A stretch of 64,000 nucleotides of DNA from Natrinema sp. CBA1119 (lineage in GTDB: Archaea; Halobacteriota; Halobacteria; Halobacteriales; Natrialbaceae): the NCBI RefSeq assembly GCF_002572525.1, contig NZ_PDBS01000002.1, positions 62,001 to 126,000 on the forward strand, written 5' to 3'. Shown here piece by piece: positions 10,020 through 63,002 of this stretch. The number at the start of each line of letters is the position of its first letter. The first letter of the stretch is position 1. The notes beneath the pieces are model-generated. The model searched no databases and had not been told where the DNA came from. It saw only the letters and a list, made by a program, of their open reading frames with translations. The translations under genes and the position numbers were made by a program.

Positions 10020-10541
10020 TTATTCACTGGTCCCGTTACCGCCAGTTTCGTTGCCACCGCTGCCGCCACCTTGGATTTGCAAGTCGCCCTCCATATTCGG
10101 ATGGGGCTCACAGCGGTATCTGGCCATCTCGCTACTGGCCGTAAAATCAAAAAACAGTCCGTCACCAGGGTCTGAGACCGGTTCGCCCGTCGTGAGGTCA
10201 TCGATGACTTCGTCGTTACTGTTCCGAATCTGCATATTGTGGGCTGCACCATCGCCTTCCGACCAGCCGATCGTATAATCCTCACCCTCCTGAAGGATAA
10301 GCGTCGGGTTCTGCTCGCCCTCGATTGAGGATGGGGCAAGGCCTTCCCAGTGACCCGTTTGACCGCTGAAATCAAGTTGTGTTCCAGGTTCAATTTCGTA
10401 ACCGTCGCTGCTACCACCGCCATTACCACCGCCATTACCGCCACCGTTACCACCACTGCAACCGGCGACAATCGCCGTCGATGTCGCAACACCAGCCAAC
10501 TTGAGCATCCTCCGTCGGGATAGCCGCTCGTTTCGTGTCAT
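10020..10541 (-). CDS. Cupredoxin-domain Tat lipoprotein
   Basis: A 173-residue secreted copper protein. Residues 1-28 form a twin-arginine signal (SRRRMLKLAG) with lipobox VAGC (Cys28), followed by an Asn/Gly linker. The cupredoxin domain spans about 46-157 with ligands His101 (AAHNM), Cys144, His147 and Met150 (CEPHPNM). The tail has two N-x-T sites (NET, NGT). It belongs to the same paralogous group as the proteins at 30115-30627 and 33839-34372 and the N-terminal domain of 36528-38675. Its role is presumably electron transfer at the outer membrane face; the partner is unknown. The ATG at 10541 directly precedes the Tat motif. It lies next to an IS1182 relic rather than in an operon. Confidence 0.85.
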   Translation of the reverse strand: MTRNERLSRRRMLKLAGVATSTAIVAGCSGGNGGGNGGGNGGGSSDGYEIEPGTQLDFSGQTGHWEGLAPSSIEGEQNPTLILQEGEDYTIGWSEGDGAAHNMQIRNSNDEVIDDLTTGEPVSDPGDGLFFDFTASSEMARYRCEPHPNMEGDLQIQGGGSGGNETGGNGTSE

Positions 10542-10652
10542 CAAGTCACTCTTGTGCTCGTTCTCAAATGGGGGTTTTGGTTCGAGTGTCGAAACGCAGT
10601 ATAAATTGGTATACATCCTTTTGGCTCTGTCAAATTCTGTTTCCCATATGAG

Positions 10653-12186
10653 CCTGTCCAAGAAACACTGACAGGGTAATTGGATTCTGCGAGTTCTGAG
10701 TTCACATGGCGTAGATTTTATCTAGCAGAAACTCCTGGATAGTGTGAGAATCCACCCGTGACGTCCAACATCATCCGATACGACCAAGATCAGCAACACC
10801 TCTTGCCGAAGAACGTCGCGGAGTGGGTTGAAGAAGATAGCCTCGAACGCTACGTTTCCGGCGTCATCAATTATCTCGACAACGAGGGCCGGCTCGACTC
10901 CTTCTATCCGGAAGATCGGGAGGACGGCTGTGGGCGACCGTCCTTTCATCCCGTGATGATGCTGAAGATCCACGTTTTTGGGTACTGTATCGGGATCCGC
11001 AGCTCCCGAAAATCGTCCGTCTCCTTGAACGTGACGTCGCTTTCCGTTACCTTGCCGCGAATCAACACCCTGACTTCCGTACAATCAGCCTCTTCCGCAA
11101 GAACCACCGCGAGGAGTTCGAGCACCTTTTCGTCGAAATCCTTCGTCTCTGTCGCTGGCATGGTCAAAATGGCCGAAGTCGCCCTGGATAGCCGTCGCGG
11201 CCAGGGCGACGCTGCCCTCGACCAAAACCGGACTCATGAGTAGATCACCGAGGAAATCCACGACATCCTTGAGGAGTCTGCTGAGGTCAACGAAGTCGAA
11301 GATGACGAATATGGTCCCGAACAGCGCGGGGACGAGCTCCCGGAGTTCCTCCGGGAGCGAGAGGCCGACTGAACCGATTGAGGGAAGCCAGGGACCGACT
11401 CAATGCGAAGGAACAGCAACTCAAGGAGGAGCAAGCCGAGAAAATCTGCCAAAGAAAACAGGAAAAGGAAGAAATGGGCCAGAAGAAGCGTGGCCGGAAG
11501 CCCACACCTCCGGAGGACACGAAGGCAAACACGACAGACCCAGCGAGTCAAATGCTCAAAACCAGAAACGGGAGGAAACAGGGGTATAACGGCCAAACAA
11601 TGGTAAACTGCGACACGCAGGTCACGTCGCTCAGGAGATCACTACTGACGCAAACGACGTACAGCAACTCAAGCCGATGCTGGAGAACTGGGAAGAAGTG
11701 AACGGCAAGCGCCCGGAGAAGGCGCTTGCCGACGCTGGGTATTGGAGCAAAGAGAATGCGCAGTTAGCAATGGAACTGTTTATCGCCACGACCAAAGACT
11801 GGAAGCGACGGAAAGAACTTCGGGAGGCAGATCCGCCACGAGGACGGATCCCCAAGTAGTACGGGCTGAAAGAACGCATGGAGCGGAAACTCCGGACGAA
11901 ACGAGGCAGAAGCATCTACCGCAAGCGTAGTCAAAGCGTAGAAGCAGTGTTCGATCAGCACGTTACCCGCGGCTGCGACCGATTCCTGTTACGCGGGGAG
12001 ACGGGGGCACAAGCGGAGTGGTCGTTGTTTTCGGCGACGCACAACCTGCTGAAACTGTGGCGGACACGATCGCCGGATAACTGGGCCAGATTCTCATTTT
12101 GTCGACACTAACGGCCGGTCTGGCGAATCGTGTAGCGGTGTCTTCGATCGATATCGGATGACTGGTAGTGCGAATTCTTAGACAGG
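10653..12186 (+). mobile_element. IS1182-family insertion sequence, degenerate
   Basis: The ends are inverted repeats CCTGTCCAAGAA (10653) and TTCTTAGACAGG (12186). The transposase starts at 10758 with VEEDSLERYVSGVINYLD and GRPSFHPVMMLKIHVFGYC, then continues across frames: LAANQHPDFRTISLFRK, RGRKPTPPEDTKANTTDP, LADAGYWSKENAQ and the C-terminal SATHNLLKLWR. Several frameshifts and at least two internal stops disrupt it. The last 120 bp are repeated at 15907-16026. Confidence 0.75.
12067..12186 (+). repeat. IS1182 right-end repeat, copy 1
   Basis: This is the 120-bp terminal segment of the IS1182 relic. It recurs in direct orientation at 15907-16026 with only a handful of mismatches. The two copies bracket the GC-rich gene block between them. 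Confidence 0.85.
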
Positions 12187-21287: not shown

Positions 21288-22763
21288 GTCAGTACCGAGA
21301 CGCCCGAACCGACCGAAACTGAGGCGTTCGAGCGGGTCTACGAGACGCTTGTCGACCGAATCCTCGCCGGCGAGATCGAGCACAACGAGGTCGAGAAAGC
21401 CAAGCTCAAAGCTTGGTTGGGATACTCCACGTCCAAAGTGCCGAAGAAATCCGAGCTGCTGGACTACACGCCCGAAGAGCACCGCGAGACCCTCGGGACG
21501 GCGCTTTGACGCAAATCGGCTTGGACAGTCTCTGGCGTCTCGCCGGTCACGATCATGACCTCGCCAGAGCGGTGTCCTCATAGGAGTGTCTCTACTGTCC
21601 CTCGGTCCCGACTCCGAGTTCTCGTCGTCCCAGAGCTACACGGGCAAGGAGCCTGCCGCCCCTGGCAGCCAGAACGATTACAATCCGTACGAGCAGGTCA
21701 CGCTCCGGCTCGAGTAGCTGCGTCAGATCGGCCATCCCGTCGACAAGGTCATCCTGATGGGCGGGACGATATCGCCCACAACCATGACTACCAAGGGTAG
21801 TTTGTCAAGCATGCTCGAGGCGATGAATGATTTCGACATCGATAAGGAGCCCGAACCGGCCGAGGGTGTCAATTTCGCGCAGGACCCGAGGAGTACGAGT
21901 AGAAGTGTCTTGGGGACGTCATCTCAGAGAACGAGACCTCGGACGTCCACAACATCGGGACGACCTTCGAGACCAAACCCGACTGGTACGGCCCCAAGTA
22001 GCTCAACCGGATGCCTAAGGTCGGCGTCCAAACCGCCTACGAGCGTGTTAATCGGGAGGTACACCGCGCCCACGGCGTCCAGGAGTCGATTGACGCCAAC
22101 CAGCGACTGCGTGACTCGGCGTTCAAGGTCAGATTCCACATGATACCGGGTCAGCCCGGGTTAAGCAAAGAGATGTGTCTCGAGGACTTCCAGCGGCTCT
22201 TCGAGACCGAGCAGTGGAGGCCAGACTACCTGAATGTCAACCCGACTCCCGTGGTGCAGGAGACGTGACCTACGGCTGGTTGCATAGAGACAGTACGATC
22301 CCTGTCGAACTACAAGGTCACCGAGCTAATCGCCGAGATCAGGTCGACGATCCCCCGGTACACACGACTCCAGCGCGTCCAGCGAGACATCCCGGCGGAC
22401 CTCATCAACGCCGGCGTCGGAAGTCAAATTTCCACAAACTCGCCGATCAACGGTTGGATGAACACGGCTGGGCTGCAAGTATATCTGCTGTTGTGAGGCC
22501 GGAATAAACGATGAGGTGTCCGAGAACGTCGACCTCGACATACTGACCTACAAGACCTGAGGCGACACCGAACACTTCATCTTGTTCAAGGACTCCGAGA
22601 AGGACCTGCTCATCGGCTTCTGCCGATTCCGACTTCCGAACGGCCGGTTCAACTGGAACTCGAGGACACGGCGCTGGTCTGAGAACTTCACGTCTACGGC
22701 TCGGAAGTCGCCGTCGGCGGTAAAGGAGAGACCGACCAGCGCTGGAACTACGACTGCCGCCTG
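21288..22763 (+). pseudogene. elp3: Decayed Elp3 tRNA-modification enzyme gene
   Basis: Translation across frames recovers an archaeal Elp3, the radical-SAM/acetyltransferase that starts carboxymethyl-uridine formation at tRNA position 34. Segments in order: N-terminal EAFERVYETLVDRILAGEIE and KVPKKSELLDYTPEEHRETL (21307-21507), TIMTSPERCPH and in another frame CLYCP (the Fe-S cluster cysteines), DSEFSSSQSYTGKEPAA and LRQIGHPVDKVILMGG (one TAG between), MNDFDIDKEPEPAEGV, GVQTAYERVNREVHRAHGVQ, FKVRFHMIPGQPGLSKEMCL, IPRYTRLQRVQRDIPADLI, and the start of the GNAT domain (EHFILFKDSEKDLLIGFCR, ELHVYGSEV). There are at least six frameshifts and several stops, and the last part of the GNAT domain is missing. 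The start codon is lost. It is clearly not functional. Confidence 0.85.
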
Positions 22764-22822: not shown

Positions 22823-23220
22823 CTATGGTGTTTGGAGGTCTCGAACTGGCTTTACCGCGAACGTGTCTGTCTCTGTAGCTGGAGCCTCACGTGGGCGCTC
22901 CGCCAGCGGGGATGCCGACCAAGTGAGCTGGGTGATGAGCTCGTCTCGAACGGTTCGTCGAGGGATGGTGGTCTCGTGCCAGCCCAACTGGTCGTCGAAG
23001 TGCCGCTTCTGAATCTGCTCGCCGATGTCGTCGACGGTGATATACTGCGTCCGCTTCGTTCCTCCTACCTGCTGTGAGACGAACACTGCACTACGGCCTC
23101 GTGCGTCAGCTCGACGAGAGCACACTCCACGAGTGTGACGATCGACTCGTGACTCCGGTCGTTCGGAACTGTAGGTTCAAGATCCGCCTACGAGGCTCCT
23201 CTAATAGTCCAACGTGGACA
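22823..23220 (-). other. Possible relic of a small protein gene
   Basis: A minus-strand frame (22823-23125) contains a coding-like stretch (FVSQQVGGTKRTQYITVDD, RHFDDQLGWHETTIPRRTV), and a second frame upstream (SIVTLVECALVELTHEAVVQ) may be its N-terminal part after a frameshift. I recognise no family. It may be the remnant of a winged-helix or plasmid protein; it could also be chance coding. Confidence 0.25.
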
Positions 23221-23251
23221 TCGGAACCACCATGTTCTACGGCATTCCGGA

Positions 23252-23998
23252 CTACACTTCGTCGGCTAAGTAGTTGAATGCGCGAAGTGTATTCTGCCCT
23301 TCCTCAGTCAGGCTTACGTACTTCTGCCGACCGACCTCTTTGATTTCCACGTACTCCCGCTCTTGTAGTGCGTTCAGAATATGCGAATCAAGCAACCGGT
23401 ATTTACCCTTGATGTTGTCGGACTCGTACGTCTGGATAAACGGTAGGTTCACGTCCTCACTGAATTCGATGATCTCTTTTTTCGAGGCACGCCCCTGTTC
23501 GTCGAGGTAGGCGAGAATTGCGATGTGCTCTGGCGCCGGCCCTTTGATGGGATACGCTGGCATTTCATCGATACCCGCCACGCCGTAACTAACCGGTTCT
23601 GCTGGCGGGTGCTCCGTCTCCGGACCGTACCGCTCCGCACGGACATAGTAGGGGGTCGCGCCGGTCGCCATGCAGGCAATCATACCTGCAATTGCGGTGA
23701 CCTTACTCCCTGTTGCGAGGTTTACGTACACTTCATCACCACGGTAGTCGGTGATGGTTTCGGCTATCCCACCGAGACTGGCATATAGATCAAAGATATC
23801 GCAAGTATGGTTCACGACCTCGGGTGCAGCCCCCTCAAGTTTCTGTCGAACCTCTTGGTGGTACGCTGGCTTAGTGTCCGCTGCCCCATCGTGATTGAGG
23901 AGAACCACGACATCCGCGTTGAGTTGGAGTGGCGGTTCCACAACCCGGTCTCGTTCGTATCCAAGCGGAATAATATGAACGCGATTTGGAACAATCAT
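23252..23998 (-). CDS. HFX_2341-type regulator: CARF-like domain plus winged helix
   Basis: A 248-residue predicted transcription regulator. Residues 1 to about 135 form a Rossmann-like domain with alternating hydrophobic strands (ADVVVLLNH, 28-36) and the loop YVNLATGSKVTAIAGM (91-106), the position and sequence style of the ligand loop in CARF and Csa3-type proteins (DUF6293-like; inference from pattern). Residues about 155-240 are a winged helix (APEHIAILAYL, KYRLLDSHILNALQEREYVE, RQKYVSLTEEGQNTL). A GGTGAG ribosome-binding site lies eight bases upstream of the ATG at 23998. It is transcribed divergently from the ubiquitin-like operon across a 124-bp gap that contains a perfect 9-bp palindrome, so it is the obvious candidate regulator of that operon. 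A CARF domain would make it responsive to a cyclic oligonucleotide, but this is not shown by the sequence. Confidence 0.8.
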   Translation of the reverse strand: MIVPNRVHIIPLGYERDRVVEPPLQLNADVVVLLNHDGAADTKPAYHQEVRQKLEGAAPEVVNHTCDIFDLYASLGGIAETITDYRGDEVYVNLATGSKVTAIAGMIACMATGATPYYVRAERYGPETEHPPAEPVSYGVAGIDEMPAYPIKGPAPEHIAILAYLDEQGRASKKEIIEFSEDVNLPFIQTYESDNIKGKYRLLDSHILNALQEREYVEIKEVGRQKYVSLTEEGQNTLRAFNYLADEV

Positions 23999-24018
23999 CA
24001 GTTTGCCTCACCGTATCT

Positions 24019-24042
24019 ATAGTTACGATAGCACGTAACTAT
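24019..24042. promoter_or_regulatory. Candidate operator palindrome in the divergent region
   Basis: ATAGTTACG and its perfect complement CGTAACTAT are separated by six bases. The site lies 21 bases upstream of the regulator's start codon and 81 bases upstream of the ubiquitin-like gene. Position and symmetry suit binding of the dimeric winged-helix regulator, which could repress itself and influence the operon. Binding is inferred. Confidence 0.5.
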
Positions 24043-24086
24043 TGTGACTAGCAGCAGAGTCACGAAAGTGCCGATTCTCTCTCGAT

Positions 24087-24096
24087 CATACTTAAC
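24087..24096 (+). promoter_or_regulatory. TATA-like element of the ubiquitin-like operon
   Basis: CATACTTAAC is centred about 31 bases before the ATG at 24123, which fits a haloarchaeal promoter with a very short or absent leader. There is no second candidate in the interval. Confidence 0.45.
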
Positions 24097-24122
24097 CCGA
24101 TGGCGTTCTCACGTCCACGTGC

Positions 24123-24383
24123 ATGCCCCCTGAACTGACGTTCACGGTCCAATCTCCGAAGGGAGACAGTGACGAATTCACCTTCGACCAGAACAAGAAG
24201 GTCGGCGCGGCGGCCAAAGAAGTGGCCGACGCGTTTGACTATCAGAACGCGAACAACCCGACGTTCTTCCGCACCGAGGACGGCGAGCGCGAAGAACTCC
24301 AGCGTAATCGAACACTCGTGAGCTACGACCTCGACAGCACGACCGTCATCCTCAGCGATAGTGGGAAAGGCGCGAATGAATGA
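24123..24383 (+). CDS. Ubiquitin-like protein (first gene of Ubl-E2-JAMM-E1 operon)
   Basis: An 86-residue protein with the beta-grasp pattern: strand LTFTVQSP (5-12), strand DEFTFDQ (17-23), a helix VGAAAKEVADAFDY (27-40), strand TFFRTEDGE (47-55), and ELQRNRTLVSYDLDSTTVILSD with the final strand near residue 79. The tail is SDSGKGANE, so the protein does not end in Gly-Gly; Gly81 or Gly83 could become the C-terminus after trimming of three to five residues, presumably by the JAMM protease two genes down. The stop overlaps the E2-like start (ATGA at 24380-24383), which implies translational coupling. It is unlike ThiS/MoaD/SAMP proteins, which end in a bare Gly-Gly. Ubiquitin-like assignment is by fold pattern plus operon context. 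Confidence 0.8.
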   Translation: MPPELTFTVQSPKGDSDEFTFDQNKKVGAAAKEVADAFDYQNANNPTFFRTEDGEREELQRNRTLVSYDLDSTTVILSDSGKGANE

Positions 24384-24856
24384 AACGTCGGGTTAGTGAA
24401 GCGCTCCTCCGCGACGAGACGACAACCATCCAAAATCGGGCGGAGCAGTTCGGCTGGACGGTCTCTCCAGAGTTCGATCAGCTGCTGCTCACGGTAGAGT
24501 TGACCGCCCGTGACGACGAACCGTACGTCATCGAATTCGAGTGCACTGACTATGACCAAGCTCCGCCGCGGATCGAGATGCTTGATCCTAGGACGCGTGA
24601 ACCCGGAACACCCCGAGCATTCTTCGATGACCGCGGAGGTAGCCATTCGCTCCTCTGGCAAAATGGGCCGGGAATCTGCCACGCATTCAACCGGAAGTTC
24701 TATCTCGAAATTGATCAGGTGCACAACGATTGGAACCCGCAAACAATCTCTCGGTGGAAGGACGAGGCGGGGTTCCACCGGACGATCAGTGGATTCCTTC
24801 TCCTCGTCGAGCGGCGACTCCATAACGACCACTACCAGGGGCGATTTTCAGAATGA
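24380..24856 (+). CDS. E2-like ubiquitin-conjugating protein (prokaryotic type)
   Basis: A 158-residue protein. Features that recall the E2/UBC fold are an N-terminal helix (1-22), strands LLLTVELTA (35-43) and YVIEFECTD (49-57), the APPRIEMLDP segment (61-70) in the place of the E2 xPPxVxFxxP strand, and GPGICHAFN (97-104) with Cys100, the probable thioester cysteine, followed by W118-N119-P120 and QTISRW as in E2 W-x-P-x-x-T/I. It ends with a helix and HYQGRFSE (151-158), a YxGR terminus seen in prokaryotic E2 families. It would accept the Ubl from the E1 and pass it to a target. It overlaps both neighbours by 4 bp (ATGA). The E2 identity rests on motifs and context, not on a database match. 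Confidence 0.75.
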   Translation: MKRRVSEALLRDETTTIQNRAEQFGWTVSPEFDQLLLTVELTARDDEPYVIEFECTDYDQAPPRIEMLDPRTREPGTPRAFFDDRGGSHSLLWQNGPGICHAFNRKFYLEIDQVHNDWNPQTISRWKDEAGFHRTISGFLLLVERRLHNDHYQGRFSE

Positions 24857-25455
24857 TCGAGTTCTTTGAACGACTTCGTCGACTCTTGGGCCGGGACCAA
24901 TCGCCTCCAACCGGCGGTGAATCGGACCAGCAAGCAGACCGCCAGATGTATCCGACCGTTCTCGTTCCGAAAAGAGTCTGCGAAGCAACATGCGACGGAC
25001 TACGGAGTCACTCACCCGCATATGAAGACCACGAGGGCGTCGTCTACTGGGCCGGGATGGAACTTGGCGAGCCCACTCCCGAGTGGTTGCTCGTAACGAG
25101 CTGTATCGTTCCTGAAGCTTCGACTAAACCAGGACATTTCGAAGTTTCTGGGCTCGCAAACATGCGAGTGACAGAGACCGTGCACGAGCACGATATTGGC
25201 GTTCTCGCGACCGTCCATAGTCATCCCGGGACTAGCACCATCCATTCCGGGACCGACGAGGACGAGGCCTTCTTCCCGTACAACGGTTCCTATTCCATCG
25301 TCGTCCCCGAGTACGCGGACGAGGGCATGCTACCGCTGGCGTCCTGTGGCATTTATCGCTACGAGATAGACCAATTCCGCCGTCTCAATACGTCCGAGAT
25401 TGACGAGGACTTTACTGTGCTCTCGGCACCCACCCACATTGATACACGTCCATGA
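24853..25455 (+). CDS. JAMM/MPN+ metalloprotease (deubiquitinase-like)
   Basis: A 200-residue protein with a complete JAMM zinc motif: Glu61 (EGVVYWAG) upstream, then H122-S-H124-P with S132-G-T-D135 (HSHPGTSTIHSGTD), exactly the HxHx7Sx2D spacing. Such enzymes cleave isopeptide or peptide bonds after a ubiquitin-like C-terminus. Here it may mature the Ubl tail and remove conjugates. The first 30 residues form a basic/aromatic helix (EFFERLRRLLGR) and a Ser/Gln linker, possibly a localisation or docking segment. It starts inside the E2 stop (ATGA, 24853) and its own stop overlaps the E1 start (25452). Confidence 0.88.
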   Translation: MIEFFERLRRLLGRDQSPPTGGESDQQADRQMYPTVLVPKRVCEATCDGLRSHSPAYEDHEGVVYWAGMELGEPTPEWLLVTSCIVPEASTKPGHFEVSGLANMRVTETVHEHDIGVLATVHSHPGTSTIHSGTDEDEAFFPYNGSYSIVVPEYADEGMLPLASCGIYRYEIDQFRRLNTSEIDEDFTVLSAPTHIDTRP

Positions 25456-26885
25456 CACCTAATATTTCATGCACTCGAGCGGAGTTTTATGCTCGCCGGG
25501 ATGACCGGACCGAGCAACTTGTCGATACCGCGGATTATCAGACAGCGCCCATACTGATCACTGTCGCCGACGATGTCGCAGCGACACTCGCCGGACAGGT
25601 AATGACGCTCACTGCCTGCAACATCACGAGCCGGTTCAACCGCAACATCGACGTTATTGTTTCCGATGTTGCCCTCGAGACGGCAGTACAGCACGCTGAC
25701 TATCCGACAACACTTGCAGCCAGGGCATGGGCCGAGATGGCTGCTGCAGATCCGTTCGGTACGGTTCGCGTTCGCGATGCACCGGCAGATGATGATGCGT
25801 ACGAGGCTGTGCTGGCAATCGGGAACGCTCCAACACCGACCGAGCCGACGATTCGGATCGCGGCGTGTGGCTGGAGCGCGCGTATCCAGCGGAACGCGGC
25901 TATCGAGGAATTCACCGACTCTTCGTCGAACCCGATCGGTCCGGCGGCTGCTGCGTGTTTCGGCGTGGGCGAGTTGTTTAAAGCGCTCATCGGGCGGCCG
26001 GCACACCAACAGCCGGATGCCTTCTCGTTCGATGCGTTCAGCCTGACACCGAACCCGGACGGGTCACTTCATACGGTGGAGCCCCGGCTTCCATCAGCCG
26101 TGGACCTCGGGATGGTCGAACTGGCGGGCGTGGGATCCATCGGGTCGGCCCTGCTCTATGTACTCGCCATGCTTCCTGTGCAGGCGGAGCTTGCGCTCAT
26201 CGATCACGACGTCGTCGAATTTGAGAACCTGAATCGGTCACCGATCTTTACTGCTGCAGACGCAGATGTAGGTGATCGGACGAAGGTTGCGGTTGGTGAA
26301 CAGTACCTCGCGGCGCACGATGGGATCTCGGTGCAAACCTTCCCAGAACGATATGGGGCAACACAAGCGCAGGACAGTCCCTATCCCGATATCGTCCTTC
26401 CGGAGGTCGACGATGACCGTGCTCGTGAGGACATCCAGTACAGTCGTCCACCGTTGATGATTGAAACGACGACGAATGGGACGGCAGTAAACGTCCGGCG
26501 GCAGATTCCGATCCAGGAAGCGTGCTTGCTGTGTCACTTCCCGCCGGATGAAACATCGTATTCGCCGGCCTGTGCAATGGCTGATGTGGACGCTCCGGGA
26601 GTTACTGATGAAGATGAGAATGGAGCCGATAGTGGGGATGCAGCGTTACCGTTTGTATCCTGTCTTGCGGGGGTTCTACTCGCGGGTGAACTTGTGAAAA
26701 CGCAGTACGATGACTATCCCTCTGTAGAGAGCTTTATAGAGGTGGAGATGTTCACGAACTTCGACGTACCGATGCCACGGTACGAGAAGGGACGCGAGGA
26801 CAATTGCCCTTTCTGTTCGTATCGCGATGACGGGCGGTACAGAGACCTCATCAAGGGGACACGGTTTTTCTCCTTGACTCAATAA
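25452..26885 (+). CDS. E1-like ubiquitin-activating enzyme (ThiF family)
   Basis: A 477-residue protein. The C-terminal half is a ThiF/E1 adenylation domain: glycine loop GVGSIG (226-231), the acidic motif LIDHDVVEFENLNRS (249-263) that binds ATP-Mg and the Ubl C-terminus, and KVAVGE (278-283). Cys pairs C358-x2-C361 and C452-x2-C455 probably hold a zinc ion; C374 (SPACAMA) is a candidate thioester cysteine. Residues 1-200 are an N-terminal domain with a Rossmann-like pattern but no glycine loop, as in two-part E1 enzymes of bacterial ubiquitin-like operons. It would adenylate the Ubl and load the E2. It is the last gene of the operon; no co-directional gene follows closely. Confidence 0.88.
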   Translation: MTPNISCTRAEFYARRDDRTEQLVDTADYQTAPILITVADDVAATLAGQVMTLTACNITSRFNRNIDVIVSDVALETAVQHADYPTTLAARAWAEMAAADPFGTVRVRDAPADDDAYEAVLAIGNAPTPTEPTIRIAACGWSARIQRNAAIEEFTDSSSNPIGPAAAACFGVGELFKALIGRPAHQQPDAFSFDAFSLTPNPDGSLHTVEPRLPSAVDLGMVELAGVGSIGSALLYVLAMLPVQAELALIDHDVVEFENLNRSPIFTAADADVGDRTKVAVGEQYLAAHDGISVQTFPERYGATQAQDSPYPDIVLPEVDDDRAREDIQYSRPPLMIETTTNGTAVNVRRQIPIQEACLLCHFPPDETSYSPACAMADVDAPGVTDEDENGADSGDAALPFVSCLAGVLLAGELVKTQYDDYPSVESFIEVEMFTNFDVPMPRYEKGREDNCPFCSYRDDGRYRDLIKGTRFFSLTQ

Positions 26886-27055
26886 CGGAGAACAGAATCT
26901 CGAAAAAGCAGTCGACGCAGATAGCCACATTCTTCTCGTAGCGGTCCTTCTCCGAGCGAATCCGGAACGAGTGATCGTTCGCTGTGTTGGCTGAGTCGTG
27001 GTAGAGAGATCTTAGCGGGTCTTCACCGTCGTTGACGGCTCCGGATTCGCTTCCG

Positions 27056-27409
27056 TCAGTGGTGGGTCAGCGGGATCGGGTCATTGTCGCTCGCTGTCGT
27101 AGCCGCCTTTTGTGTTGACGATTCAGGAGACTTGGTGGTCTGATTTGAACCGGCCGGCTGCGTCGATGTCGTGAAGTCGGGGGATGGACTTGGCGAAGAG
27201 GGTTCGGTAGTGGGCTGAGGACGCCGGGCAGACGGTGACGATACAGCTGCACATGCAACCATCACCGCGCCAACGGAGGCGATTACGACCCCGTACCAGA
27301 TACCAGGTGGAGAACGCAGGCCGTCCACAAACAGAAGGGCTGCCCTGCCACCAATCACGAACAAGCCACCAAGACAGCCAACCACCGTTATTTCCTCACA
27401 ATACGTCAA
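27056..27409 (-). CDS. Small membrane protein with disordered tail (uncertain)
   Basis: A possible 117-residue protein with two hydrophobic segments (VVGCLGGLFVIGGRAALLFV and WYGVVIASVGAVMVACAAV) and a Pro/Ser/Thr-rich C-terminus. The frame begins with a TTG, has no clear ribosome-binding site, and no family is recognisable. It is convergent with the E1-like gene. It may be a real small membrane protein or a chance frame. Confidence 0.4.
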   Translation of the reverse strand: MTYCEEITVVGCLGGLFVIGGRAALLFVDGLRSPPGIWYGVVIASVGAVMVACAAVSSPSARRPQPTTEPSSPSPSPDFTTSTQPAGSNQTTKSPESSTQKAATTASDNDPIPLTHH

Positions 27410-27842
27410 ATATGCCTAAATGATTGCTCCCGGCACTTTTCATCTCATATATCCAGACTGAGAAATTTAAGCTGAAATAGAGCTATTATGCATTTTACCG
27501 TTCGTTTAACATATTATATCCACCAAAACTGTACAAAACCCTGTCGAAAACTGCGAATTGCTTCCGGAACTGGCGGAAGGGCGGCCCTGAGAGTCCCACC
27601 GAATGCGGCTGTAAATACCTGTTCTGGATTCCAGTCGGTGGTGAGACCGTCTCCCACTACTCAATATCAGGGTCTCAACTGCCGAACATCGGTTTGTCCT
27701 ACTCATACCCGACGTTACTCTATCGAGTTCAATCGTCACTATCACCCTCTTGCTCACCGCCTCTGTCAAGCTACTGAGAACGCTGGATAGTCGCGCGTGA
27801 TTCGCTACTTGTGCCAGTGCGAAGCCGTCACCGGTACAGTAG
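27410..27842. other. Intergenic stretch, no gene seen
   Basis: A plus-strand frame of about 100 codons (27488-27790) exists but has neither a plausible composition nor a homologous look. I treat the stretch as non-coding. Confidence 0.35.
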
Positions 27843-28115
27843 CTACTCGATATACTGTGATTCCCACGCTCGTCGGTCCTTGATAGCTTCTTCGCCGTCT
27901 TCCGTGATTGTGTAATAGTTTGTTCGCCTATCGAGCTGCCCTTTTTCGACGAGGTCCTTGTTGACGACGGTATCGAGATTCGGATACAGCCGGCCGTGAT
28001 TGATCTCGTCACTGTAGTACTGCTCAATCTCTTCTTTCACGTCCTGACCAGACGGTTGGTTAGCACCAGCGATCACGTATAGCAGGTCTCGTTGGAACCC
28101 TGTGAGATCATCCAT
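27843..28115 (-). CDS. PadR-family transcriptional regulator (paralogue 1)
   Basis: A 90-residue winged-helix protein of the PadR family: GFQRDLLYVIAG (helix 1), SGQDVKEEIEQYY, INHGRLYPNLDTVVNKDLVEKG (the recognition helix and its typical G-R-L-Y-P motif) and DRRTNYYTITEDGEE (the wing). There is almost no C-terminal dimerisation helix, as usual for short haloarchaeal versions. The ATG at 28115 aligns with paralogues at 28665-28958 and 53035-53310. Upstream sequence shares a motif with the third paralogue (28142-28174), suggesting a common promoter or operator. The target genes are unknown. Confidence 0.88.
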   Translation of the reverse strand: MDDLTGFQRDLLYVIAGANQPSGQDVKEEIEQYYSDEINHGRLYPNLDTVVNKDLVEKGQLDRRTNYYTITEDGEEAIKDRRAWESQYIE

Positions 28116-28141
28116 GTTGTGGCAATTCAATCGTTCTAATG

Positions 28142-28174
28142 TTTGTTATCAGATCCGTACATGGCTGTATGTCA
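28142..28174 (-). promoter_or_regulatory. Shared upstream motif of PadR gene 1
   Basis: TTTGTTATCA followed by GTACATGGCTGTATGTC (plus-strand reading) lies 27 bases upstream of the start. The same arrangement (TTTGTTATCA, then GTACATGCCAGTGTATGAC) precedes the PadR gene at 53310. On the coding strand TGATAACAAA sits where a TATA box is expected, and the second part may be an operator. Confidence 0.4.
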
Positions 28175-28375
28175 ACGCTAGAGACTCTCTTTATAAGTTG
28201 GCCGGAGAGGCTCACAGAGTGTTCAGCCTGTATGTTTACCTATATGCTATGGAAATCGGTCTCTCATGCGGACTCCTAACTTCCGAATGTATCTCCAAGA
28301 ACTCATAGCATCTCCAACAGGGAATACAATTAAGCAGTATCGTATTGAGCATTATATATGCGGGTGAAGTGATAC

Positions 28376-28651
28376 ATGTATCTGGCCGATGACCCTCGTC
28401 CCCCGCTCCCCGAGTGGATCATTGAGGCGTACGCTGTCCTTTCTGCTGAGATATCGAACTCGAACACCGAAGACAGCAACCAGCAGGTCCCGTCAATCGA
28501 TCGAGATCGGGCGATCGATATCCTTTGCACAACTGACCAACTGACACTCGAGTCAGCGGATGCAGAGCATGCAATCACACGGCTCCTCGAGCGCGGGTAT
28601 TTTTACGAAGTCGGCGCTGAACTCCGCGTGACTCTCCCATCTGCGGAGTGA
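28376..28651 (+). CDS. Unknown small haloarchaeal protein
   Basis: A 91-residue acidic protein with a helical, winged-helix-like C-terminus (DRDRAIDILCTT, ESADAEHAITRLLERGYFYEV). It could be a small DNA-binding regulator (DEEDxx-AHxxITRLLERGYxxxV resembles a recognition helix plus wing), but no family is recognised. It lies between and convergent to a PadR gene. Confidence 0.55.
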   Translation: MYLADDPRPPLPEWIIEAYAVLSAEISNSNTEDSNQQVPSIDRDRAIDILCTTDQLTLESADAEHAITRLLERGYFYEVGAELRVTLPSAE

Positions 28652-28664
28652 AGATGTTGCTCCG

Positions 28665-28958
28665 TCACTTGGATTCGGAGAGGAAGCCGCTCATGTACTG
28701 GTCTTCCCACTTGCGACGGGCTTCGAGTTCACGGTGGCCGCGAGCCGTGATCGTATAGTAGTTCGTTCGGCGGTCGAGTTCACCCTTCTCAACGAGGCCT
28801 TTGTCGACGATCTCGTCGAGGTTCGGATAGAGCCGCCCGTGGTGTATCTCCTTCTCGTAGTACTCCTCGAGTTCGTCTTTAATCGCGAGACCATGTGGCT
28901 CGTCCTGATCGGCGATCGCGTACAACAGGTCACGCTGAAACGCAGTGAGATCGTACAT
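28665..28958 (-). CDS. PadR-family transcriptional regulator (paralogue 2)
   Basis: A 97-residue winged-helix protein, clearly paralogous to 27843-28115: FQRDLLYAIADQ, HHGRLYPNLDEIVDKGLVEKG and DRRTNYYTITARG. It is more diverged than paralogues 1 and 3 are from each other and carries a longer C-terminal helix (ELEARRKWEDQYMSGFL). The shared upstream motif is absent here, so regulation may differ. Confidence 0.88.
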   Translation of the reverse strand: MYDLTAFQRDLLYAIADQDEPHGLAIKDELEEYYEKEIHHGRLYPNLDEIVDKGLVEKGELDRRTNYYTITARGHRELEARRKWEDQYMSGFLSESK

Positions 28959-29102
28959 ATCCGAATGTGTGTATATTGGCTGCTGAAGGTTCTGGGATCA
29001 TCCTTCGGATCTGTTGCCCTTCTGTAGAACTGCAGAAGAGGACATAAACCGGGGAGAGACAGGGATCTACCACCGACGAGCGGCTACGCTACAGACGGTG
29101 AC

Positions 29103-29408
29103 TTAAGCCCCACCATTGTGGTGCTCAGAATCGAGCCGAGCATACGCGTCTGCAGTGGCGCGTAGTTCGGTGAGTGACCTGTTGAGCGTCAGTAGCTCGG
29201 GAAGTTGTTCGTCGATCTTTCTTAGCGTCTGTTCAGCCTTAAGGAGTGCCTCATGCAGATCGTCGACGGGAATCTGACCGCCATCCACGGCGCCACGTTC
29301 TGGGTGATACCTCTGATCACCGTACGCCGAGTCAGGAACCGGATCGTCGACACCGAGAGCTCGGTCGAACTCAGGGACGTCCTGAGGATCGGGCTCATCT
29401 GGCGTCAT
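29103..29408 (-). CDS. Unknown acidic protein, third gene of a small operon
   Basis: A 101-residue protein with a disordered acidic N-terminus (DEPDPQDVPEFDRAL) and a predicted coiled coil (LHEALLKAEQTLRKIDEQLPELLTLN). The family is not recognised, though such proteins recur on haloarchaeal plasmids. The start overlaps the stop of the preceding gene (ATGA at 29405-29408), so the two are translationally coupled. Confidence 0.6.
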   Translation of the reverse strand: MTPDEPDPQDVPEFDRALGVDDPVPDSAYGDQRYHPERGAVDGGQIPVDDLHEALLKAEQTLRKIDEQLPELLTLNRSLTELRATADAYARLDSEHHNGGA

Positions 29409-29596
29409 CGGTCGAGCACCTCGACGTCAGGATTCGCACCGGCTGGACCAGCGACTGCTTTCGCACGCTCGCGTTCGCGGCGCTCTCGCTGGGCCTGCCG
29501 TTCGAGGGCGTCTGCCCGACGACAGCGGTCGATTCTCTCATCGTCGACGTCATCGATCGTAAAACGCTTACCACGGTGGTCGATCTGTTCGATCAT
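29405..29596 (-). CDS. Unknown basic/charged small protein, second gene of a small operon
   Basis: 63 residues, starting MIEQIDHRGKRFTIDDVDDE and continuing into a long charged helix (ADALERQAQRERRERERAK). The frame is open further upstream to 29734, but the start at 29596 is chosen because it overlaps the stop of the upstream zinc-finger gene (TGATG) and begins with ordinary sequence. Function unknown. Confidence 0.55.
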   Translation of the reverse strand: MIEQIDHRGKRFTIDDVDDERIDRCRRADALERQAQRERRERERAKAVAGPAGANPDVEVLDR

Positions 29597-29751
29597 CAGG
29601 CTGAAGCCTCCTGAGCCGCGTCTCGAGCGTCCGCCTGCAGGTGGCCGTATTGGACTGCACAGCTGTCCGAGCAGAACCGGCCAGCGTATCCTGCCTGACC
29701 GCGAGTGAGTGCTGACCAGTTCGGCATTCGGCATGCGTTGCGGTTGGTCAT
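29596..29751 (-). CDS. 51-residue putative zinc-finger protein, first gene of a small operon
   Basis: MTNRNACRMPNWSALTRGQA ... FCSDSCAVQYGH: cysteines at 7, 27 and 31 with His37 could form a small treble-clef-like zinc site (FCSDSC knuckle). The ATG at 29751 is preceded by a still smaller frame (25 codons from the ATG near 29828) whose stop also overlaps it. The ATG/TGA coupling through the next two genes supports translation. Function unknown; probably DNA- or RNA-binding. Confidence 0.5.
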   Translation of the reverse strand: MTNRNACRMPNWSALTRGQAGYAGRFCSDSCAVQYGHLQADARDAAQEASA

Positions 29752-30114
29752 CTGGCGATACCTCGCTTCAGGAATTGAGTCGTCTCCGCGTCTGGCGACG
29801 CTGTTGCTACATCAGTTGTTCGCATGGATTGCTGCGGCGGACTTCAGTCGAGCCCCCGCACCCCTCTGGGGACGACAAACCATCTCGAGCGAACGACCAG
29901 TTCAACTCACAGTTCATCTGTAGATAGTCGCACGGTTTCTTTATTCAGAATAATTTCTGAAATCGAATCGGGGAGATTCAGTAACTATGCGTGCAAACTA
30001 AACGTCGATTTAAGACCGCTATCAGCTATTGTCTAGAGTTGGATCTCCGGTTAGGCTTGATCCCCATGCATTGACAGGTACTCTCCTATTTGTGTTGAGT
30101 CCCAAGCTAGCCTG

Positions 30115-30627
30115 ATGACACAAGATAAGCATGTATCCCGACGGCAGATGCTCACGCTGACAGGTGTCGCAACATCAACGGCGTTCATCGCCGGATGCGG
30201 TGGCGGCGGTAACGGTGGTAACGGCGGCGAGGCAATCGAGCCTGGCATGCAGATTGAGTTCAACGGGCAGACATCCGGCTGGGTCGGCATCGCGCCCGAC
30301 TCAATCGCAGACGAAGAAAACCCGACAATCACCCTCCAAGCGGGAGAAACCTACGAGATCGGCTGGACCGAAGGCGACGGTGCCAACCACAATATCGCGA
30401 TTTACGACGACAGCGACGAGGTCATTAATGACCTTGCGACCGAGGAGACCTCCGATCCCGGCGACGACCAGTGGTTGGAATTCGAGGCCAGCAGCGAGAT
30501 GGTCACGTACATCTGCGAGGTCCATCCGACTTCGATGGTCGGCGATATTCAGGTCGAAGGTGGCGGCGGTGGGAACCAGACCGAGAACCAAACTGGCGGG
30601 AATGAAACCGGAAACCAAACTGGGTAA
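30115..30627 (+). CDS. Cupredoxin-domain Tat lipoprotein with Asn-Gln-Thr tail
   Basis: A 170-residue secreted copper protein. Signal: SRRQMLTLTG with lipobox IAGC (Cys28). The cupredoxin domain (40-150) has ligands His92 (ANHNIAI), Cys134, His137 and Met141 (CEVHPTSM). The tail NQTENQTGGNETGNQTG contains four N-x-T sequons in 17 residues, so it may be heavily N-glycosylated outside the cell. It is nearest to the protein at 33839-34372, and their downstream sequences are also homologous in inverted orientation. Likely an electron carrier; partner unknown. The membrane protein at 31070-32473 converges on it. Confidence 0.88.
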   Translation: MTQDKHVSRRQMLTLTGVATSTAFIAGCGGGGNGGNGGEAIEPGMQIEFNGQTSGWVGIAPDSIADEENPTITLQAGETYEIGWTEGDGANHNIAIYDDSDEVINDLATEETSDPGDDQWLEFEASSEMVTYICEVHPTSMVGDIQVEGGGGGNQTENQTGGNETGNQTG

Positions 30628-33838: not shown

Positions 33839-34372
33839 TTAGCCGGACTGATTGCCGGTTTCGTTTCCGGTCGTGTTCCCGTCAGTGGTGTTGCCGCCAC
33901 CGCCGCCACCTTCGACCTGAATATCGCCGACCATCGTTGTCGGGTGGACCTGGCAGATGTACGTGGTCATTACGTCGCTGGCCTGGAACTCGAGCCACTG
34001 ATTTTCCGGTTCGGTGACGACCTCGGTCGTGAGATCATTGACAACCTCGTCGTTTTCGTTGCGGATTTCGATGTTGTGCCGGGCGCCGTCGCCCTGGGTC
34101 CAGCCGATCTCGTAGGTTTCTCCTGCTTGGAGGATGAGCGTCGGGTTCTCTTGGTCCGCGATCGAGTCAGGTGCGATACCGACCCAGCCAGACGTCTGCC
34201 CGTTGAACTCTATTTGCGTGCCCGGCTCGATTTCGATCCCACCGCCGTTGCCGCCGTTACCGTTGCCGTTACCACCGCCGCCACCACCGCAGCCGGCGAC
34301 GAACGCCGTTGATGTTGCGACACCTGTCAATTTGAGCATCCGCCGTCGAGATGTTTGCTTACCATCGGTCAT
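33839..34372 (-). CDS. Cupredoxin-domain Tat lipoprotein inside the composite unit
   Basis: A 177-residue secreted copper protein. Tat signal SRRRMLKLTG, lipobox VAGC (Cys28), Gly/Asn linker, and a cupredoxin domain with His99 (ARHNIEI), Cys140, His143 and Met147 (CQVHPTTM). The tail NTTDGNTTGNETGNQSG has four N-x-S/T sequons. The ATG at 34372 directly precedes the Tat motif; the 19-codon upstream extension is discarded. It is nearest to 30115-30627 and in opposite orientation, with homology continuing downstream, so the pair forms a diverged inverted duplication. Confidence 0.88.
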   Translation of the reverse strand: MTDGKQTSRRRMLKLTGVATSTAFVAGCGGGGGGNGNGNGGNGGGIEIEPGTQIEFNGQTSGWVGIAPDSIADQENPTLILQAGETYEIGWTQGDGARHNIEIRNENDEVVNDLTTEVVTEPENQWLEFQASDVMTTYICQVHPTTMVGDIQVEGGGGGGNTTDGNTTGNETGNQSG

Positions 34373-34646
34373 TGGGTTGATTTGGGGCTCAAGACGAATC
34401 ATCAGACACCCATCTAATGCAGGCCCCAACCCTAGTTAAATAATTTATTTATGAAATATGGAGTATGTTGCGAGATTTATGTTCTATTCGTATCTTCGCT
34501 GAGCGATACGTGCACCGCCTCCGCTGATCGTTCCGACAGAAATAGTCAGGAGAATCTCCTAAAAGAAAAGGAAATGATGTTTCATCGGAACGGCATTCTA
34601 ACCAGATTATTAAATTTTCGCTCTTGTGGCGTAGATTGTTGGTGAA

Positions 34647-53034: not shown

Positions 53035-53310
53035 TTAGAAATCCACGTACTGTGATTCCCACTCTCGCCGCTCTTGCAGTTGTTCAAGACCAACATCCGT
53101 GATATCGTAGTAGTTGGTCCGGCGATCCAGTTGCCCTTTCTCCACTAACTCCTTGTTGACGATGGTGTCAAGATTCGGGTAGAGCCGGCCATGGTTGATT
53201 TCTGAACTATAGTACTGCTCTACTTCATCTTTCACATCTTGGCCTGATGGCTGTTCGTTGCCTGCGATCACGTACAGCAGGTCGCGTTGAAACCCTGTCA
53301 GATCGTCCAT
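53035..53310 (-). CDS. PadR-family transcriptional regulator (paralogue 3)
   Basis: A 91-residue winged helix, nearly identical in layout to 27843-28115: GFQRDLLYVIAGNEQPSGQD, INHGRLYPNLDTIVNKELVE, KGQLDRRTNYYDITDVG. Its 3' end is convergent with the interrupted gene (stops four bases apart). The upstream motif (53335-53368) is shared with paralogue 1. The retention of three PadR paralogues suggests separate targets. Confidence 0.88.
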   Translation of the reverse strand: MDDLTGFQRDLLYVIAGNEQPSGQDVKDEVEQYYSSEINHGRLYPNLDTIVNKELVEKGQLDRRTNYYDITDVGLEQLQERREWESQYVDF

Positions 53311-62474: not shown

Positions 62475-63002
62475 ATGGCCCGCGTGTACACGTTCGGACA
62501 CTCCTCGCGTTCGATCGAAGAGTTCGTCTCAGTGCTCCACAGCTACGACGTCACCATCGTAGTCGACGTCCGCCGGTTTCCCGGCTCGCGGCGGAACCCC
62601 CAGTTCGGTGCTGACGCGCTGGCCACGGCCCTCGACGAGCACGGGATCGGATACCGCCACTTCGAGGCGCTTGGGGGCCGGCGTTCGAGCCCCGAGGCGG
62701 ACTCACCGAACGACGAGTGGGACAACGACTCGTTCCAGGCGTACGCCGACTACGCGCTCACCGACGAATTTCAAACTGCGCTCGACGAGCTGGTCGCGCT
62801 CGCCGAGACCGACGTGCCGGCGATTGTCTGCGCCGAAGCCGTCTATTGGCGCTGTCATCGGCGGATCATCGCCGACTGGCTCCTCGCCCGCGGCTGCGAC
62901 ATCGTCAATATCTATGACGTCGACCACGCTGACGAGCACGAATTGACTCGATTCGCGGAGGTGGCAAACGGGCGGGTTACCTATCCTGCGGGTGGAAAGT
63001 AG
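62475..63002 (+). CDS. DUF488-family protein
   Basis: 175 residues. VYTFGHSSRSIEEFVSVLHS, VVDVRRFPGSRRNPQFGADA, LGGRRSSPEADSPNDEW and IVCAEAVYWRCHRRIIADWL are all signature segments of DUF488, with the C-A-E...C-H-R cysteines (Cys137, Cys146 approximately). The family is widespread and of unknown function, with proposals around nucleotide or stress metabolism. It starts 40 bases after the duplicated integrase end. Length is normal. Confidence 0.88.
   Translation: MARVYTFGHSSRSIEEFVSVLHSYDVTIVVDVRRFPGSRRNPQFGADALATALDEHGIGYRHFEALGGRRSSPEADSPNDEWDNDSFQAYADYALTDEFQTALDELVALAETDVPAIVCAEAVYWRCHRRIIADWLLARGCDIVNIYDVDHADEHELTRFAEVANGRVTYPAGGK

What the first reader, a model, noticed from the sequence alone, without database searches (positions are those of the whole stretch)
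23252..26885. Complete ubiquitin-like conjugation operon (Ubl, E2, JAMM, E1) with a divergent CARF-like regulator in an archaeon
Four genes overlap by ATGA at every junction: a beta-grasp protein, an E2-like protein with Cys100 followed by W-N-P, a JAMM protease with perfect HxHx7Sx2D, and an E1 with GVGSIG and Cys pairs. Known archaeal SAMP systems have E1 and JAMM but no E2; the set with E2 recalls bacterial ubiquitin-like antiphage (Bil-type) operons. A divergent HFX_2341-type regulator with a CARF-like ligand loop and a palindromic site stands 124 bp away. A ligand-sensing regulator next to a Ubl conjugation system in a mobile region would be a defence or stress system I do not know to be described.
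Basis: partly seen in the sequence, partly recalled or inferred. Interest (0 to 1): 0.92.

Follow-up and report, generated by a model that had tools for sequence, protein, structure and literature searches.

The report
Archaeal plasmid ubiquitin-like conjugation operon
A salt-loving archaeon carries on a plasmid a complete four-gene kit for attaching a small ubiquitin-like protein to other proteins, closely akin to a bacterial anti-virus system called Bil but in a compact form; a ligand-sensing regulator of a common family sits beside it only in this genus.

Summary
The four-gene operon is real: Ubl (24123-24383), E2 (24380-24856), JAMM (24853-25455) and E1 (25452-26885), joined by three ATGA overlaps. 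The E2, JAMM and E1 match BilB, BilC and BilD (E 7.6e-7, 1.8e-10, 6.7e-30). The best PDB sequence match of the E1 is Bil E1 (8tyz) and of the JAMM is Bil DUB (8tyx). The same gene order occurs in seven more haloarchaeal loci and on Mesorhizobium and Mycolicibacterium plasmids. So the system is Bil-like, but a compact variant: one Ubl domain, an E2 motif C-x3-NR-x2-Y-x6-H instead of CEHH, and a short E1 loop with one invariant Cys374 instead of the long CYS insert. It is rare (5 of 391 haloarchaeal genomes). In three genomes it adjoins a pAgo-nuclease-HerA cassette, which favours defence. The host keeps a separate SAMP E1 and desampylase. The divergent DUF6293/CARF-like regulator is real but adjoins the operon only in this genus; of 29 close relatives 11 flank glyA, while three relatives stand beside pAgo operons. 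Most likely: Ubl-conjugation immunity, target unknown. E2 and Ubl folds could not be confirmed by structure prediction (low pLDDT).

The parts
23252..23998 (-). divergent regulator, DUF6293/HFX_2341 family: N-terminal CARF-like domain plus C-terminal winged helix (248 aa)
   Evidence: PF19810 1.3e-41, PF22665 1.4e-30; PADLOC CARF3 1.6e-92; neighbour of the operon only in the window and N. zhouii
24019..24042 (.). inverted repeat ATAGTTAC-N8-GTAACTAT, 21-44 bp upstream of the regulator start, likely its own operator
   Evidence: sequence; the 16 arm bases unchanged in N. zhouii while 21 of 124 intergenic bases differ; function inferred
24087..24096 (+). TATA-like element (cATACTTAAC) about 30 bp upstream of the Ubl ATG, consistent with a leaderless operon transcript
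   Evidence: read from the sequence; inference, no transcript data
24123..24383 (+). ubiquitin-like protein (BilA-like, single domain, 86 aa), conserved Gly83 (24369-24371) followed by a three-residue tail ANE
   Evidence: orthologue at the same position in the other haloarchaeal loci and both bacterial operons; archaeal vs bacterial Ubl profiles 96.7%; profile vs ubiquitin 16.6% with unrelated-control profiles at or below 1%; weak hits to ISG15, and UBX and YukD for the bacterial orthologues
24380..24856 (+). E2-like conjugating enzyme (BilB-like, 158 aa); Cys100 at 24677-24679, His115 at 24722-24724
   Evidence: PADLOC BilB 7.6e-7; profile vs Bil-type E2s 77-80% with controls at or below 0.6%; C100, N104, R105, Y108, H115 and W118 invariant in 6 copies
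24853..25455 (+). JAMM/JAB protease (BilC-like, 200 aa); E61, H122, H124, S132, D135
   Evidence: Pfam Prok-JAB 6.9e-7; BilC 1.8e-10; PDB 8tyx DUB(BilC) 6.9e-10, the best match
25452..26885 (+). E1 (BilD-like, 477 aa): N-terminal half like an inactive adenylation domain, C-terminal ThiF-type active domain; GVGSIGS 26127-26147; invariant loop Cys374 at 26571-26573; Cys pairs C358/C361 and C452/C455
   Evidence: BilD 6.7e-30; ThiF 1.2e-18; PDB 8tyz E1(BilD) 1.1e-22, the best match; alignment and tree
23127..29987 (.). 6.9-kb block shared with the N. zhouii plasmid at 94.7% (regulator, operon, downstream PadR genes); flanks unrelated, so it probably moved as one unit

Best explanation
This is a haloarchaeal, plasmid-borne, compact form of a Bil-type ubiquitin-like conjugation system, most likely an anti-virus (or anti-mobile-element) system. 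Proposed cycle: the JAMM protease trims the one-to-three-residue tail after the conserved Gly83 of the Ubl; the E1 adenylates that glycine and passes it to its loop cysteine (Cys374); the Ubl is handed to Cys100 of the E2, with His115 assisting; the E2 attaches it to target proteins, perhaps structural proteins of an infecting virus as in bacterial Bil; the JAMM can also remove it. The divergent DUF6293 protein is most likely a local, genus-specific, ligand-responsive repressor or activator recruited to control the operon, occupying the place that CapH+CapP-like regulators occupy beside the bacterial siblings. Shown here: gene content and order, conservation of catalytic residues, homology of E1, JAMM and E2 to Bil proteins, sporadic distribution, and juxtaposition with pAgo cassettes. 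Inferred: the reaction order, the conjugation itself, the target, the antiviral role and the ligand.
For: Homology to Bil proteins by HMM and PDB sequence. E2 profile match to Bil-type E2s with clean controls. Same four-gene order in 8 haloarchaeal loci and in bacterial plasmid operons of M. huakuii and M. chubuense; the bacterial E2 finds the archaeal E2s by tblastn. E1 tree: archaeal copies plus these two bacterial ones versus canonical types, 97/99. Every Ubl has a Gly followed by a 1-3 residue tail, as a JAMM-processed precursor should. Rare and patchy (5/391; 2/125 in the family), several copies on plasmids. In 3 of the 5 positive genomes the operon lies next to pAgo + DUF2797 + HerA, with a PLD nuclease in one or more; P of at least 3 of 5 by chance 0.0005-0.002, before correcting for shared ancestry. 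Separate UbaA and desampylase in the genome. Bacterial Bil blocks phage by conjugating to the central tail fibre (PMC12948488), and BilC exposes the BilA glycine (PMC11354881).
Against: No conjugation or virus data. E2 and Ubl folds were not confirmed: the two AlphaFold jobs gave pLDDT 37 and 47. A PADLOC scan of 10 other window proteins found no defence gene except a DUF488 protein matching candidate-defence models. The pAgo neighbours belong to one sub-clade of three related operons, so they are not three independent events. Bub operons with the same chemistry have not been shown to protect against phage (PMC13373217), so a stress role is possible.
Confidence: 0.7

Rival explanations
1. The operon conjugates the Ubl to host proteins as a stress or DNA-damage response (Bub-like role), not as antiviral defence.
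For: Bub operons share the chemistry and the damage-responsive regulators but have no demonstrated antiphage activity (PMC13373217); the bacterial siblings carry ImmA/IrrE plus HTH regulators of the CapH+CapP kind; the window regulator is closer to glyA-linked chromosomal ones than to pAgo-linked ones.
Against: Patchy plasmid distribution and pAgo/HerA neighbours fit defence better; proteins closest to Bil, not Bub (BilD 1e-22 vs BubCD 1e-3).
Confidence: 0.2
2. The genes form a sulfur-transfer or cofactor pathway (ThiS/MoaD-like carrier plus E1 and JAMM), and the 158-aa protein is not a conjugating enzyme.
For: The E1 belongs to the ThiF superfamily; beta-grasp carriers serve sulfur transfer in haloarchaea.
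Against: No thiamine, molybdenum or tRNA-thiolation gene noted beside the operon in the loci read; no rhodanese domain match in the E1; Ubl tail after Gly; E2 and E1 match BilB and BilD; UbaA and desampylase present separately.
Confidence: 0.05
3. The regulator is a passenger of the common DUF6293 family (glyA-type) that happens to lie beside the operon and does not control it.
For: Family in 38/41 haloarchaea and close relatives in 197/381 genomes; 11 of 29 nearest relatives flank glyA; missing beside the operon in all other lineages.
Against: Divergent arrangement with a 124-bp promoter region; inverted repeat kept intact; regulator and operon share one 6.9-kb block with N. zhouii; relatives also stand divergently beside pAgo operons.
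Confidence: 0.3

Closest known systems
BilABCD (bacterial ISG15-like antiphage system)
   Same: Gene content and order Ubl-E2-JAMM-E1; homologous E1, E2 and JAMM; Ubl with a tail after Gly that needs trimming; plasmid-borne and patchy
   Different: Single Ubl domain instead of two; E2 keeps the catalytic Cys and a downstream His but not the Glu and first His of CEHH; E1 lacks the long CYS insertion and instead has Cys374 in a short loop; host is an archaeon; divergent DUF6293 regulator instead of CapH+CapP/CapW/CapK+CapS
Iyer 2006 operon types 6c and 6d (prokaryotic Ubl, JAB, E1 and E2)
   Same: 6c (pNGR234 type) carries a predicted metal-binding protein that shows the CEHH pattern of BilB; 6d has a small stand-alone Ubl with terminal Gly and an E2 with the histidine downstream of the cysteine
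   Different: No alpha-helical extra protein, no JAB-N domain found, no E1-fused E2; the 6c and 6d table rows read here list bacteria only (PMC1779556)
Haloarchaeal SAMP system (UbaA, desampylase)
   Same: E1 superfamily, JAMM protease, beta-grasp modifier
   Different: No E2; housekeeping genes present separately in this genome
Caldiarchaeum E1/E2/RING ubiquitin cascade
   Same: An archaeal cascade with an E2
   Different: Has a RING E3 and a eukaryote-like ubiquitin (PMC5654768, from the abstract); no sequence comparison made here
DUF6293/HFX_2341 and Csa3-type CARF-wHTH regulators
   Same: CARF-like N-domain plus C-terminal winged helix
   Different: Below the NCBIfam cut-offs for HFX_2341 and Csa3; genome has no Cas10 match, so a CRISPR cyclic oligoadenylate is an unlikely ligand

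Membership tests
Bil (BilABCD) | four adjacent genes Ubl, E2, JAMM, E1 | tested here: met
Bil (BilABCD) | E1 related to BilD | tested here: met
   PADLOC 6.7e-30; PDB 8tyz 1.1e-22
Bil (BilABCD) | JAMM related to BilC with intact metal site | tested here: met
Bil (BilABCD) | E2 of BilB type with CEHH motif | tested here: not met
   BilB HMM 7.6e-7 and profile 77-80%, but only Cys and the last His of the motif are kept (motif from PMC11354881)
Bil (BilABCD) | BilA with two Ubl domains | tested here: not met
   86-aa single domain; that bacterial Ubls of these operon families may have one to three domains I know only from memory (Gong 2025)
Bil (BilABCD) | about 80-residue CYS insertion with catalytic Cys in E1 | tested here: not met
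   loop of about 25 residues with Cys374
Bil (BilABCD) | Ubl conjugation and phage protection | not testable with these tools
   needs experiment
SAMP/UbaA | E1 over the NCBIfam UbaA cut-off | tested here: not met
   21.8 bits against 450
Bub | best E1 match to Bub proteins | tested here: not met
   BubCD 1e-3 vs BilD 1e-22
E2 (UBC) fold | E2 fold in three dimensions | tested here: inconclusive
   AlphaFold with two sequences, pLDDT 37
beta-grasp (ubiquitin) fold | beta-grasp fold in three dimensions | tested here: inconclusive
   pLDDT 47, strand-strand-helix-strand-strand order; ubiquitin profile match 16.6% vs controls at or below 1%
CARF regulators | CARF domain plus wHTH | tested here: met
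   Pfam and PADLOC by sequence; ligand binding not tested

The most novel reading that the evidence does not exclude
The DUF6293 protein senses a small molecule made during infection and switches on the adjacent Ubl-conjugation operon, so that archaea have a ligand-gated protein-conjugation immune system; the same regulator family also gates an Argonaute system.
Probability: 0.2. Interest if true: 0.85.

Novelty: new variant of a known kind. Interest (0 to 1): 0.62.

Why it matters
E1-E2-JAMM conjugation for defence is so far described in bacteria; a complete, E2-containing set in haloarchaea, outside the SAMP pathway and apparently shared with bacterial plasmids, would extend it to a second domain. 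Its compact E1 and altered E2 motif show which parts of the Bil machine can be dispensed with. Haloarchaeal genetics makes it testable.

Tried and rejected
Single-protein scan of genome contigs returned only N. zhouii. Viral-contig scans with the E2 and E1 profiles and a phage-record search with the E1 found nothing. A first window-versus-N. zhouii comparison mixed several records in one file and seemed to show a second operon copy; the repeat on single records removed it. Sulfur transfer and SAMP were rejected. A CRISPR type III ligand was made unlikely by the absence of a Cas10 match. No shared operator was found upstream of the regulator's relatives. No paper describing an archaeal Bil operon was found in the held library; the key Bil and Bub papers themselves are not held.
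Full report
Observation. Differences between the window and the 95% identical N. zhouii plasmid copy are mostly synonymous, third-position changes in all five genes, so these are genes under purifying selection.

What the proteins are. The E1 matches ThiF (1.2e-18) and, over residues 30-339, BilD (6.7e-30); among all PDB sequences its best match is Bil E1 8tyz at 1.1e-22, far ahead of ThiF, MoeB and eukaryotic E1s. The JAMM protein matches BilC (1.8e-10) and PDB Bil DUB 8tyx (6.9e-10), again the best. The 158-aa protein has no Pfam family above cut-off, but matches BilB at 7.6e-7 and, as a profile, Bil-type E2s at 77-80% probability where unrelated controls stay at or below 0.6%. The Ubl has no family hit above cut-off; its profile gives a weak ubiquitin match (16.6%, controls at or below 1%) and there are weak ISG15, UBX and YukD hits for it or its orthologues. 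Position and the conserved Gly plus short tail complete the case. Structure prediction failed to add proof (pLDDT 37 and 47).

Distribution. An E2 search found 5 of 391 haloarchaeal genomes and 2 of 125 in the family. Together with plasmid records there are eight haloarchaeal loci, every one with the same four genes in order. The host contig is 250 kb, plasmid-sized. The same order appears on plasmids of Mesorhizobium huakuii and Mycolicibacterium chubuense, and the Mesorhizobium E2 finds haloarchaeal E2s by tblastn. The E1 tree separates archaeal plus these two bacterial proteins from canonical Bil-like E1s (97/99), with long-branch caution for the two bacterial rows.

What differs from canonical Bil. 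Bil-type operons from rhizobial plasmids carry a 238-240 codon multi-ubiquitin protein, and BilB carries Cys, Glu, His, His (PMC11354881). The window type has one Ubl domain, an E2 motif C-x3-N-R-x2-Y-x6-H-x2-W that keeps the Cys and the last His (both catalytic according to that review) but not the two structural residues, and an E1 whose catalytic-cysteine insertion is reduced from about 80 residues to about 25, with Cys374 as the only invariant candidate besides the metal-site pairs and Cys169 in the N-terminal half. It is therefore filed as a compact variant related to Bil, not as canonical Bil.

Context. In three genomes (G279, G061, G083) the operon converges with a cassette of a long prokaryotic Argonaute, a DUF2797 protein and a HerA helicase, with a PLD-type nuclease read in G083. 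That pAgo class occurs in 15-25 of 381 genomes, giving 0.0005-0.002 for three of five by chance, an overstatement because the three are related. N. zhouii and the window share a 6.9-kb block, 23127-29987, with unrelated flanks.

The regulator. It is a CARF-like plus winged-helix protein. Its family is in 38 of 41 haloarchaea. Among 29 nearest relatives 11 flank glyA and 2 an EamA transporter (these two names are my reading of the sequences); three relatives stand divergently upstream of a DUF2797-pAgo operon. In the tree the window pair is sister to the glyA-rich clade and the pAgo-linked ones are separate (midpoint root). Elsewhere the divergent neighbour is different: an AAA-ATPase with winged helix in Halomarina, HTH plus ImmA/IrrE peptidase in Mesorhizobium and Sinorhizobium GR64, and ImmA/IrrE peptidases in Mycolicibacterium. 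CapH+CapP and CapW stand beside Bub operons and CapK+CapS beside some Bil operons (PMC13373217). I read the DUF6293 protein as a lineage-specific regulator recruited to that place. Its inverted repeat covers its own promoter region, which suggests autoregulation; control of the operon is an inference. No Cas10 match in the genome argues against a type III CRISPR ligand.

Novelty. Makarova and Koonin (2010) stated that no archaeal E2-like protein had been detected (PMC2948915); the Caldiarchaeum cascade has since been described (PMC5654768). Iyer et al. (2006) tabulated prokaryotic Ubl/E2/JAB/E1 operons in bacteria (PMC1779556). I found no paper on a haloarchaeal Bil-like operon in the held library, which lacks the main Bil papers, so priority is not established.

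Noticed in passing
L075 (G269), L076 (G179), L077 (G283): Relatives (about 47% identical) of the window's DUF6293 regulator stand divergently upstream of a DUF2797-pAgo operon in three genomes of different families.
   Followed up: partly
L008, L009, L010: A long-pAgo cassette with DUF2797, HerA and an unknown 456-aa protein (PLD nuclease read in L010) converges on the Bil-like operon; in L009 the pAgo frame is split in two pieces.
   Followed up: partly
L021-L049: Many close DUF6293 relatives flank glyA (serine hydroxymethyltransferase), suggesting a metabolic ligand for that clade.
   Followed up: partly
L013:9388-10602: A divergent AAA-ATPase with C-terminal winged helix lies 58 bp from the Halomarina Ubl gene and may be its regulator.
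   Followed up: partly
window 22011-22268: Fragment of a radical SAM protein resembling Elp3, apparently a pseudogene, upstream of the shared block.
   Followed up: no
window 27843-28130, 28665-28958, 53035-53310: Three similar small PadR-type regulators in one window.
   Followed up: no
window 10020-10661, 30115-30627, 33839-34429: Three similar secreted proteins with the same Gly-rich start (halocyanin-like by eye).
   Followed up: no
window 62475-63002: DUF488 protein with PADLOC candidate-defence matches (PDC-M45B 1e-25).
   Followed up: no
L009:94-6508: PD-(D/E)XK nuclease plus UvrD-type helicase pair (AddAB-like) upstream of the operon in G061.
   Followed up: no
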